From contig NZ_FQVC01000005.1 of assembly GCF_900128975.1 (NCBI RefSeq), forward strand, positions 124,001-188,000: a stretch of 64,000 bases of DNA, written 5' to 3'. Below, in pieces: positions 43,434-44,782 of this stretch (the stretch's first letter is position 1; every line of letters starts with the position of its first letter). This DNA is from Devosia limi DSM 17137. GTDB taxonomy: Bacteria > Pseudomonadota > Alphaproteobacteria > Rhizobiales > Devosiaceae. Position numbers and translations under genes: made by a program. Below the pieces are notes generated by a model that worked only from the letters and a program-made list of their open reading frames with translations, ran no database searches and was not told the DNA's origin.

Positions 43434-43463
43434 TTGACAAGTCGCTCCGCTTTGGCCTTCAAT
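43434..43463 (+). promoter_or_regulatory. candidate promoter of the leader ORF
   Basis: TTGACA (43434-43439), 18 bases, TTCAAT (43458-43463). The predicted start of transcription falls about at the ATG of the 20-codon ORF (43470), so its message could be nearly leaderless. Confidence 0.4.
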
Positions 43464-43469
43464 AGGACC

Positions 43470-43532
43470 ATGCGTAGAACTTATTCTGCCTGCTGCCCCC
43501 ATCACCGGTTGCGCCTGCTCCGAGGCGCGTGA
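43470..43532 (+). CDS. putative 20-residue leader peptide
   Basis: Short open frame MRRTYSACCPHHRLRLLRGA, ending right at the foot of a 12-bp hairpin. It has adjacent Cys-Cys and His-His pairs and Arg/Leu-rich end, as in some attenuator peptides. Length gives no statistical support. The evidence is the promoter before it and the hairpins after it. Confidence 0.3.
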   Translation: MRRTYSACCPHHRLRLLRGA

Positions 43533-43668
43533 CCTGGTTCGGCTACCTGCGTGAGCAAGAGCCGGACCAGGATAAGCACCCTTAACCCCAGATCTAGTTT
43601 TCAGCCCGCCTGGCGGGTTGAGCCCGTTGCGCTGTCGCGCGCAACCGGACCCCGTGCGGGACGGTTGC
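43533..43668 (+). ncRNA. structured 5' leader with three hairpins
   Basis: Three stems follow the short ORF: CCTGGTTCGGCT/AGCCGGACCAGG (43533-43571, one G-T pair), AGCCCGCC/GGCGGGTT-type (43603-43618), and GCAACCG/CGGTTGC enclosing CCCG/CGGG (43641-43668). This explains the 304-base gap between marC and the 68-residue gene. I match it to no known riboswitch. Confidence 0.4.
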
Positions 43669-43703
43669 GGCTGCCCAGCGGGTCGAAGGCTCGGAGCCAT
43701 TCA

Positions 43704-43910
43704 ATGACGTTCAAATATTCGCTCACCATTCCCGCTCTTGGCAGCCACAAGCTCAAGCGTTTCAACCTCTGGGCCGCCGCCAATCTGCCTGGGCTCGCCT
43801 ATAGCCTGCCGGTCCAGACGCCGATCAAGACCGAAAACATGACCATCCGCCTGCGCAGCGAAGCCGACAAGGCAGCGGTTCTATCGGCGTTCCCCGCCAC
43901 CCTGCCCTGA
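43704..43910 (+). CDS. small hypothetical protein
   Basis: 68 residues, basic in the middle (GSHKLKRFNLWAAANLP), ending IRLRSEADKAAVLSAFPATLP. No signal peptide or convincing membrane segment. It follows the structured leader and precedes the Rnk-like gene by 69 bases. No family recognised; moderate coding evidence only. Confidence 0.45.
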   Translation: MTFKYSLTIPALGSHKLKRFNLWAAANLPGLAYSLPVQTPIKTENMTIRLRSEADKAAVLSAFPATLP

Positions 43911-43979: not shown

Positions 43980-44423
43980 ATGTCTGAACAATCCAAATTC
44001 CTGATGACCGACCGGGACTATGCCATTTTGCGGGGTATTTCCCTGCATCGTCCGACCGGCCAGCGCGGCTATTACGCGCTATTGCGCCACAAGCTCACCG
44101 CAGCCGTCATTGTGCCGCCCGATGACCTCGATCCCGATGTGGTCACCATGAACTCCATGGTGCGCTACCGGCTCAGTGAGGGGCGCCCGCTCGAGCATCG
44201 CCTGGTCATCGGCCCGGCGCGCGAGGTCATTGGCCAGACCGTATCGCTGCGCTCGATCCATGGCCTGGCGCTGCTCGGCATGCGCGATGACCAGGCATTC
44301 GAATTCGTGCTGGACGACATGCCGCTGGCCAGCGTGCGGGTCGAAACGGTGATGTTTCAGCCTGAGGCCGACGCAGAGATCGTCGCCCAGGGCCGGGCGC
44401 GCTCCGGCGCGGCGCTGTTCTGA
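43980..44423 (+). CDS. Rnk/GreA C-terminal-domain protein
   Basis: 147 residues. An N-terminal helical part (MTDRDYAILRGISLHRPTG) is followed by an FKBP-like GreA/Rnk domain with VVTMNSMVRYRLSEGRPLEH and SIHGLALLGMRDDQAFEF. Such proteins bind RNA polymerase near the secondary channel or act as nucleoside diphosphate kinase regulators. It lacks the full GreA coiled-coil, so transcript cleavage is unlikely. Start at ATG 43980 rather than an in-frame ATG 60 bases earlier. Confidence 0.75.
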   Translation: MSEQSKFLMTDRDYAILRGISLHRPTGQRGYYALLRHKLTAAVIVPPDDLDPDVVTMNSMVRYRLSEGRPLEHRLVIGPAREVIGQTVSLRSIHGLALLGMRDDQAFEFVLDDMPLASVRVETVMFQPEADAEIVAQGRARSGAALF

Positions 44424-44430
44424 CGAGTCC

Positions 44431-44461
44431 AAAAAAAAACGGTCGGCGCCAAGGCCGACCG
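44431..44461 (-). terminator. intrinsic terminator of the 40-residue gene
   Basis: GGTCGGC-gccaag-GCCGACC (44441-44460) with a run of nine A at 44431-44439, a strong T-run on the minus strand. It lies between two convergent genes. Confidence 0.85.
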
Positions 44462-44484
44462 TCACTCTGTTCCGGTGACCGAAG

Positions 44485-44607
44485 TCACTTCTTGCCGGTA
44501 TTGCCGGCGCTGCCGCTGCCCAGACCAGTGACGGGCTTGGCGGCCACGACCTTGTCTTTCTTCGGCTTCTTGGCTTCCTTGTTGCTCTTCATCTGACCCT
44601 TGGCCAT
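44485..44607 (-). CDS. small lysine-rich protein (MAKGQ family)
   Basis: 40 residues, MAKGQMKSNKEAKKPKKDKV followed by a Gly/Ser tail ending NTGKK. Short, very basic proteins starting MAKGQ occur widely in proteobacteria as uncharacterised genes. A perfect downstream terminator and a GGAG site just upstream support expression. Nucleic-acid or ribosome binding is a guess from charge. Confidence 0.6.
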   Translation of the reverse strand: MAKGQMKSNKEAKKPKKDKVVAAKPVTGLGSGSAGNTGKK

Positions 44608-44782
44608 CTCAATCTCCTCAAAGGGGCGCGGCCGCCCGAATATGACAGGGGTGACGCTATGCCGGGCGCGAATCGCTGGCAAGGGCTCCCGTCATCGGCG
44701 CACCGGCCATTTCACCAGCCATCGTTTGCAGTGCGCAAACAACGGGATTACCGCTGGTTTCGTTGCATCCGGCGCCGGCGCG

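What the first reader, a model, noticed from the sequence alone, without database searches (positions are those of the whole stretch)
43434..43704. Possible peptide-controlled leader upstream of the 68-residue gene and rnk-like gene
A TTGACA promoter is followed at transcription start by a 20-codon ORF with CC and HH pairs, then by three hairpins (12-bp stem at 43533, then 43603 and 43641), then the 68-residue ORF. That order resembles attenuation. I recognise no known riboswitch.
Basis: partly seen in the sequence, partly recalled or inferred. Interest (0 to 1): 0.55.

Follow-up and report, generated by a model that had tools for sequence, protein, structure and literature searches.

The report
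Conserved uORF-hairpin leader RNA in Hyphomicrobiales
In front of a gene for an unknown 68-residue protein, Devosia and many related soil bacteria keep the same start of the message: a very short reading frame that seems to begin at its first base and ends right beside a conserved RNA hairpin, which looks like an undescribed switch worked by the ribosome.

Summary
In detail: TTGACA at 43434, a 20-codon ORF at 43470-43532 and three hairpins precede a 68-residue gene and a Rnk-family gene. The leader is conserved in Devosia, Mesorhizobium, Aminobacter, Aquamicrobium, Kaistia, Rhizobium, Neorhizobium and, with some losses, Ensifer, Shinella and Agrobacterium; no Rfam 15 family matched. Of 82 distinct leaders, 73 carry both TTGAC with an ATG 34-36 nt downstream and a stop codon 3 or 6 nt before the hairpin arm; in all 73 these are in frame, uninterrupted, 10-20 codons apart. 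The main hairpin P1 has compensatory changes at 8 of 17 pairs (33 sequences, no shuffle of 500 as good). A second hairpin, P0, lies inside the last uORF codons. Cys and His pairs are not conserved (CC 2, HH 5 of 73) and no conserved terminator was found, so amino-acid attenuation is unlikely. Best reading: a translated, probably leaderless uORF whose ribosome controls the downstream start site. For that step there is evidence in the main Devosia group only (23 leaders), where the uORF can pair with the downstream start codon; in the window it is one 8-nt match. New family of a known kind; signal and protein function unknown.

The parts
43434..43439 (+). -35 element TTGACA
   Evidence: Sequence; TTGAC with an ATG 34-36 nt downstream and a stop beside P1 in 73 of 82 distinct leaders
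43458..43463 (+). Weak candidate -10 element TTCAAT, 18-nt spacer
   Evidence: Position only; strict promoter scan negative; inferred
43470..43532 (+). 20-codon uORF MRRTYSACCPHHRLRLLRGA plus TGA, probably leaderless; stop directly before the P1 arm (3 nt from its first base)
   Evidence: in 73 of 73 leaders with both features the ATG is in frame with the stop, no internal stop, 10-20 codons
43511..43528 (+). P0 hairpin inside the last uORF codons: 6-bp stem, 6-nt loop
   Evidence: -10.7 kcal/mol; same register in 51 leaders outside the main Devosia group: 242 of 306 pairs standard versus 75-162 at slid registers; shuffles mean 217, highest 231 of 1000
43533..43571 (+). P1 hairpin CCUGGUUCGGCUACCUGC-GUGA-GCAAGAGCCGGACCAGG with bulged A and C.A mismatch (model match 43531-43573)
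   Evidence: changes on both sides at 8 of 17 pairs; all five measures above all 500 shuffles in A8
43601..43621 (+). P2 hairpin
   Evidence: a predicted hairpin at the corresponding place in 6 of 6 leaders of the window's subgroup, by eye
43622..43683 (+). P3, long imperfect hairpin
   Evidence: a corresponding long hairpin in 5 of 6 subgroup leaders, by eye; weak support
43517..43524 (+). uORF segment GCTCCGAG, exact complement of 43690-43697 over the Shine-Dalgarno region
   Evidence: pair I6; duplex -18.5 kcal/mol; the other 5 subgroup leaders reach only -6.6 to -10.4
43690..43697 (+). CTCGGAGC, Shine-Dalgarno region of the 68-residue gene
43704..43910 (+). 68-residue protein gene, beta-alpha-beta-alpha fold predicted, function unknown
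   Evidence: No Pfam or NCBIfam family; AlphaFold2 mean pLDDT 83.3; clear orthologs in 31 of 75 genus genomes
43980..44423 (+). Rnk / GreA-GreB-C-terminal family gene
   Evidence: NF004396 E 8.4e-13, below its cut-off; PF01272 E 0.028, below its cut-off

Best explanation
The region is a cis-acting leader of a family not found in Rfam 15. Transcription starts at or next to the AUG of a 10-20-codon uORF, so the ribosome can load without a Shine-Dalgarno sequence (inferred). The last uORF codons form hairpin P0; the stop codon begins 3 or 6 nt before hairpin P1, a long stem with one bulged base, nearly always A. A ribosome translating or terminating on the uORF melts P0 and covers the 5' arm of P1; after release both refold (inferred from the distances). 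Through this the uORF sets how accessible the downstream start site is. In the main Devosia group the 3' half of the uORF can also pair with the downstream start codon, so that translating the uORF would expose it. Shown here: conservation of promoter spacing, frame, stop position, P0 and P1, and (main Devosia group only) the uORF-start complementarity. Inferred: transcription start, translation, direction of control, any signal. In the window itself the link to the start site is only an 8-nt match to the Shine-Dalgarno region. That this is a conserved cis-regulatory leader with a translated uORF I hold at about 0.9; the mechanism as stated at 0.45.
For: Frame: 73 of 82 distinct leaders have both the promoter-spaced ATG and a stop 3 or 6 nt before P1; in 73 of 73 the frame is open between them, at lengths of 10, 12, 14, 15, 17, 18, 19 and 20 codons. 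Stops are TGA 63, TAG 15, TAA 1 of 79. P1 covariation. P0. Pairing in the main Devosia group: mean z -2.19 at the start codon, 11 of 23 leaders below -2, between -0.54 and +0.46 beyond 12 nt from it; 0 of 300 and, for three uORF segments against the start codon, 0 of 200 permutations each. Gene link: all 31 genus genomes with a clear 68-residue ortholog have the hairpin at E 0.01 or better (in G020 the copy beside the gene reaches only 0.006); in an order sample 10 of 297 genomes have the protein and all 10 are among the hairpin hits. The leader also precedes other genes: Rnk-like, NUDIX (Pfam), Mrp antiporter (Pfam).
Against: Folding with and without a ribosome on the uORF stop gives no consistent change of Shine-Dalgarno accessibility: G3 7 up, 1 down of 23; the window's subgroup 0 and 0 of 6; main Devosia 8 up, 6 down of 23. 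In the main group the matching is to the start codon, not to the Shine-Dalgarno stretch (98 and 196 of 200 permutations as good for the two segments at the uORF end). At the start codon the complementarity is not seen in the window's subgroup (141 of 300) or in G3 by sliding window; G3 gives mixed weak signals (9 of 300; 1 and 2 of 200 for the first third of the uORF) among 15 tests per group. Codons 2-13 show no clear synonymous excess (261 against 217 expected; a control frame 252 against 195); codons 14-20 do (147 against 78) but overlap P0. In the two narrower P1 alignments two of five measures do not beat the shuffles: pairs changed on both sides 94 of 500 and 19 of 500 as high, pair types 281 and 149 of 500. 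Nine of 82 leaders lack the standard arrangement, two of them (L068, L069) a stop beside P1. In 3 of 10 Rhizobiaceae plasmid loci (L155, L157, L161) no ATG uORF ends at the hairpin. Leaders share ancestry, so counts are not independent. No expression data.
Confidence: 0.45

Rival explanations
1. P1 (with P0) is a binding site for a ligand or an RNA-binding protein, possibly the 68-residue protein itself, and the uORF is secondary.
For: The inner part of P1 (ACCUGC / GCAAG) is almost invariant in 40 diverse sequences; the 68-residue protein is predicted as a small beta-alpha-beta-alpha fold and its weak best fold matches include RRM and KH domains, none at E 0.001 or better.
Against: In Agrobacterium (3 sequences) the inner part has changed with pairing kept and the C.A mismatch turned into U-A, so that sequence is not essential everywhere. 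In five genomes (G002, G017, G018, G027, G029) the hairpin occurs with no 68-residue match at E 0.001. It does not explain the in-frame stop.
Confidence: 0.2
2. The uORF controls Rho-dependent termination or RNA decay in the leader rather than the start site of the next gene.
For: No intrinsic terminator in the window's leader and no conserved one in relatives (7 of 52); a uORF and a long downstream leader would allow it.
Against: No positive evidence; Rho sites were not tested.
Confidence: 0.15
3. The leader is also, or mainly, a trans-acting small RNA that encodes a small peptide.
For: The S. meliloti trp attenuator yields a leaderless small mRNA with functions in trans (PMC10117765 and PMC7298713, passages read).
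Against: No terminator-like site in the window's leader; the N-terminal half of the peptide shows no clear conservation; the leader stays linked to the downstream gene.
Confidence: 0.1
4. Classical amino-acid attenuation through Cys or His codons.
For: CC and HH in the window's uORF.
Against: CC in 2 and HH in 5 of 73 uORFs; no terminator-like site in the window's leader; none of the downstream genes identified is an amino-acid biosynthesis gene.
Confidence: 0.03

Closest known systems
trpL / rnTrpL attenuator of Sinorhizobium meliloti
   Same: Same order; a short uORF at the transcript's first base (PMC7298713 and PMC10117765, passages read).
   Different: No conserved run of one amino acid and no conserved terminator here; the downstream gene is not a known biosynthesis gene.
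rnk- and greA-leaders of Proteobacteria, bacilli and Clostridia (PMC2965389, passages read)
   Same: Leader near a greA/rnk family gene.
   Different: The paper reports terminator and antiterminator structures; none was found in the window, Rfam does not match, and the gene next to the leader is usually the 68-residue one (39 of 44 loci).
Translational attenuators such as the erm leaders (recalled; one paper on them seen only in the listing)
   Same: A uORF whose ribosome alters pairing near the downstream start.
   Different: No antibiotic link known; pairing to the start site supported only in the main Devosia group.
RAPP arrest peptides such as ApdP (listing and abstract beginnings only; its occurrence in Alphaproteobacteria is recalled)
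   Same: Short peptide encoded upstream of a gene.
   Different: None of the 79 uORFs listed contains RAPP; no protein-localization gene was seen downstream.

Membership tests
Amino-acid attenuator | Run of regulatory codons conserved in the leader peptide | tested here: not met
   For Cys and His: CC 2, HH 5 of 73 uORFs
Amino-acid attenuator | Intrinsic terminator between leader and gene | tested here: not met
   No terminator-like site on the + strand between 43434 and 43704; weak sites in 7 of 52 leaders
uORF-controlled leader | Short ORF conserved in frame and position across relatives | tested here: met
   73 of 82 distinct leaders have both features; 73 of 73 in frame
uORF-controlled leader | The ORF is translated | not testable with these tools
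   Needs ribosome profiling or reporter fusions
Translational attenuator | Leader can sequester the downstream start site and a ribosome on the uORF frees it | tested here: inconclusive
   Complementarity to the start codon in the main Devosia group (23 leaders), not in the window's subgroup, mixed in G3; no consistent accessibility change
Any Rfam 15 family | Match at gathering score, or a convincing sub-threshold match, at the leader | tested here: not met
rnk-leader | Terminator and antiterminator upstream of rnk | tested here: not met
   No terminator, no Rfam match; definition from passages of PMC2965389; antiterminator not tested
Riboswitch | Specific small-molecule binding | not testable with these tools
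   In-line probing needed

The most novel reading that the evidence does not exclude
A previously undescribed ribosome-sensing leader class: a uORF starting at the transcript's first base and ending directly beside a bulged hairpin reports how initiation or termination on leaderless messages is going, and uses this to set the level of a nucleotide-related module (68-residue protein, Rnk-family factor, NUDIX hydrolase) across Hyphomicrobiales.
Probability: 0.25. Interest if true: 0.75.

Novelty: new member of a known kind. Interest (0 to 1): 0.55.

Why it matters
It adds a well-supported structured leader with a uORF, not found in Rfam 15, in common soil and plant-associated bacteria including conjugative plasmids. 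It ties an uncharacterised small protein to Rnk and NUDIX genes and gives a clean system for testing how a ribosome on a leaderless uORF controls the next gene.

Tried and rejected
Known riboswitch or other Rfam family: five searches gave nothing at the leader. Intrinsic terminator: none in the window's leader, weak sites in 7 of 52 leaders. Cys/His attenuation: rejected by counts. General Shine-Dalgarno switch: not supported. Naming the 68-residue protein: no Pfam or NCBIfam family, no fold match at E 0.001 or better. Phage origin: no match in 50,697 phage records. No relative of the protein in viral contigs by the search for related loci, but the hairpin pattern hit two viral contigs, both followed by a 68-residue homolog; L141 has the same uORF and hairpin letters as Aquamicrobium L121, so probably host sequence. 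Reverse-strand model hits at the same places are echoes of the near-palindrome. A second 68-residue copy in G070 is in two pieces and has no model match.

Rows dropped before counts: G063 (E 0.003, judged false by eye: no uORF or 68-residue gene) was left out as L073. 103 collected leaders became 82 after removing identical 130-nt stretches; the 10 plasmid loci are not among the 82. L009 was dropped as a copy of L008. L014 and L015 were left out of both models for odd loops. For A8 I kept 27 of the 40 rows of A5 and 6 of 10 plasmid loci, to cut near-copies. The groups G1, G2 and G3 (main Devosia, window's subgroup, Mesorhizobium-Kaistia-Rhizobium) were set by eye before the tests. L093 gave no pattern match in my script and was not examined. 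In some searches only 15 and 16 candidates per genome were scored, so weak copies may be missed; one search found 1 of 385 genomes of the class, the window's own.

Full report
What is there. The genus of the window's genome is Devosia, inferred from the named records that match its relatives. Between a marC-family gene (Pfam MarC E 4.7e-51; ends 43399) and the 68-residue gene (43704-43910) lie TTGACA (43434-43439), a 20-codon ORF (43470-43532, MRRTYSACCPHHRLRLLRGA), hairpin P1 (43533-43571), P2 (43601-43621), P3 (43622-43683) and a small predicted hairpin over the Shine-Dalgarno region (43685-43702). A further hairpin, P0 (43511-43528), sits inside the last uORF codons. The gene at 43980 looks like a member of the Rnk / GreA-GreB-C-terminal family, below the curated cut-offs.

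More than chance. P1 folds to -27.7 kcal/mol; 4 of 3000 random + strand 43-mers of the window do as well. The leader as a whole has z -2.64.

Conservation in the genus. The 68-residue protein has clear orthologs (E below 1e-16) in 31 of 75 genus genomes; the tally at E 0.001 is 38, the other 7 being partial weak matches. In all 30 loci fetched there are TTGAC, an ATG 34-36 nt after it, an ORF of 17-20 codons, and a stop that begins 3 or 6 nt before a CCUGG arm. A model of P1 built from 27 of these (R1) matched 38 of 75 genus genomes at E 0.01, including all 31 with the ortholog; the other 7 are G002, G017, G018, G027 and G029 (no 68-residue match), G061 (contig ends just inside the gene) and G063 (judged false).

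Beyond the genus. R1 matched 51 of 136 genomes of the family (genus included) and 16 of 397 sampled from the order. A DNA pattern found 42 records in the named genome collection: Devosia, Mesorhizobium, Aminobacter, Aquamicrobium, Pseudaminobacter, Kaistia, Rhizobium, Neorhizobium, Pseudorhizobium and records named only to order or family. With two viral-contig records, 39 of 44 loci have a 68-residue homolog 84-127 nt after P1; of the other five, two stretches end too soon after P1 and three have another gene: Mrp antiporter (Pfam), NUDIX, Rnk-like. In plasmids the protein occurs in 35 of 72,556 records (Agrobacterium 22, Ensifer 8, Shinella 3, Rhizobium 1, Neorhizobium 1; 23 typed conjugative). 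Of 10 plasmid loci fetched, 9 are annotated, and in all 9 a NUDIX gene ends 196-216 nt before the 68-residue gene. The P1 model matches 6 of the 10; in the other 4 the changed hairpin is visible by eye. An ATG uORF ending beside it is present in 7 of 10; promoter spacing was not scored there. In the order sample 10 of 297 genomes have the protein, and all 10 are among the hairpin hits.

P1. In 27 genus sequences 98.3% of cells are paired and in 40 diverse sequences 94.9%, with changes on both sides at 8 pairs; in these two alignments percentage paired, cells changed on both sides and the covariation score beat all 500 shuffles, but the number of such pairs (94 and 19 of 500 as high) and of pair types (281 and 149 of 500) does not. 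Adding six Rhizobiaceae plasmid sequences to 27 others gives 8 of 17 pairs with changes on both sides, 52 such cells, 24 further pair types and score 0.349; none of 500 shuffles reaches any of the five measures, and slid registers pair at 30.5-45.5%. The 17 pairs include the C.A position, unpaired in 30 of 33. In Agrobacterium (3 sequences) the otherwise near-invariant C-G pair becomes G-C and the C.A mismatch becomes U-A, while the bulged A stays; one Shinella sequence has G there. P1 thus seems selected as a stem with one bulged base rather than for one loop sequence.

The uORF. Of 82 distinct leaders, 73 have both TTGAC with an ATG 34-36 nt downstream (62 at exactly 35) and a stop 3 or 6 nt before P1; neither was chosen by frame. 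In 73 of 73 they are in frame without an internal stop, at lengths of 10 to 20 codons. Keeping the frame while the length changes is what translation requires and what a pure RNA element would not, though many of these leaders share ancestry. Among 79 leaders with a uORF by a second script, the stop begins 6 nt before the arm in 62 and 3 nt in 17. C-terminal ends are similar over wide distance ([KR]GSLLIG, GSLQTG, RLLRGV, RKAG), but part of this is forced by P0. Synonymous changes exceed expectation in codons 14-20 only in the true frame (147 against 78.3; other frames 84 against 90.5 and 105 against 96.2), not clearly in codons 2-13 (261 against 217; other frames 252 against 195 and 132 against 170.5) (197 non-independent pairs). 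CC occurs in 2 and HH in 5 of 73.

P0. In the 51 leaders outside the main Devosia group, pairs at a fixed register relative to P1 are standard in 242 of 306 cells, against 75-162 at slid registers; shuffling partners among leaders gives a mean of 217 and at most 231 in 1000, so much of the pairing is common to the group and the excess over shuffles is modest. The register is the same whether the stop is 3 or 6 nt from P1. In the 31 main-group leaders this register is not seen (82 of 186, slid 28-96).

Downstream of P1. The linker to the start codon folds better than shuffled linkers: mean z -1.75 in the window's subgroup (6), -0.98 in main Devosia (23), -0.99 in G3 (22). A terminator-like site was found in 7 of 52 leaders.

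How it may work. In 23 main-group Devosia leaders the 3' part of the uORF is complementary to the downstream start codon region: mean z -2.19 at the start codon with 11 of 23 below -2, and values between -0.54 and +0.46 more than 12 nt away. Matched pairs beat all 300 permutations and, for three uORF segments against the start codon, all 200; against the Shine-Dalgarno stretch the two segments at the uORF end do not (98 and 196 of 200). This suggests that the uORF holds the start codon closed and translation opens it. The window's subgroup (6 leaders) does not show it (141 of 300); G3 gives no dip at the start codon and mixed weak signals elsewhere (9 of 300; 1 and 2 of 200 for the first third of the uORF; 5-6 of 22 leaders below -2 inside the coding region). 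The window has the 8-nt complement 43517-43524 with 43690-43697. Computed Shine-Dalgarno accessibility with a ribosome on the stop codon has no consistent direction. The mechanism is thus partly supported in one group and inferred in the rest.

The protein. AlphaFold2 gives a beta-alpha-beta-alpha fold at mean pLDDT 83.3. The best PDB match is weak (an RNA-binding domain, E 0.19) and none reaches E 0.001. No function can be assigned.

Known or not. No Rfam 15 family matches the leader. Searches of the paper library (one search listed 20 of 89 papers) turned up nothing that I recognised as this leader; passages of PMC2965389, PMC10117765 and PMC7298713 were read, the other papers were seen as listings and abstract beginnings. 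The closest in layout is the leaderless trpL uORF of S. meliloti; the closest by neighbouring gene are the rnk-leaders, which have terminators.

Noticed in passing
L154, L156-L163 (plasmids of Agrobacterium, Ensifer, Shinella, Rhizobium): A NUDIX hydrolase gene lies about 200 nt upstream of the 68-residue gene in 9 of 9 annotated loci; in Devosia relatives (L071, L072) and in L086 a copy of the leader precedes a NUDIX gene.
   Followed up: partly
L065, L066: Two genus genomes (G027, G018) keep the leader and uORF intact but have no recognisable 68-residue gene behind it; ORFs that look Rnk-like by eye follow.
   Followed up: partly
44485-44610 (- strand): Small lysine-rich ORF (MAKGQMKSNKEAKKPKK...); similar-looking small ORFs lie behind the leader in L071, L072, L074 and L139 (by eye). 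A terminator-like hairpin at 44438-44463 is on its strand.
   Followed up: no
L100, L103, L104, L112, L115: A small CxxC...CPWC protein gene follows the 68-residue gene, before the Rnk-like gene, in several Devosia genomes but not in the window.
   Followed up: no
L080, 3310-3352 (- strand); L119: A leader copy lies before a 1018-residue Mrp-antiporter-type ORF (Pfam Proton_antipo_M E 1.2e-60, MnhB E 8e-37).
   Followed up: partly
L137, 5530-5668 (- strand): Sub-threshold match to Rfam Brucella sRNA CI27 (45.4 bits, gathering 59.8, E 1e-6) downstream of the 68-residue gene.
   Followed up: no
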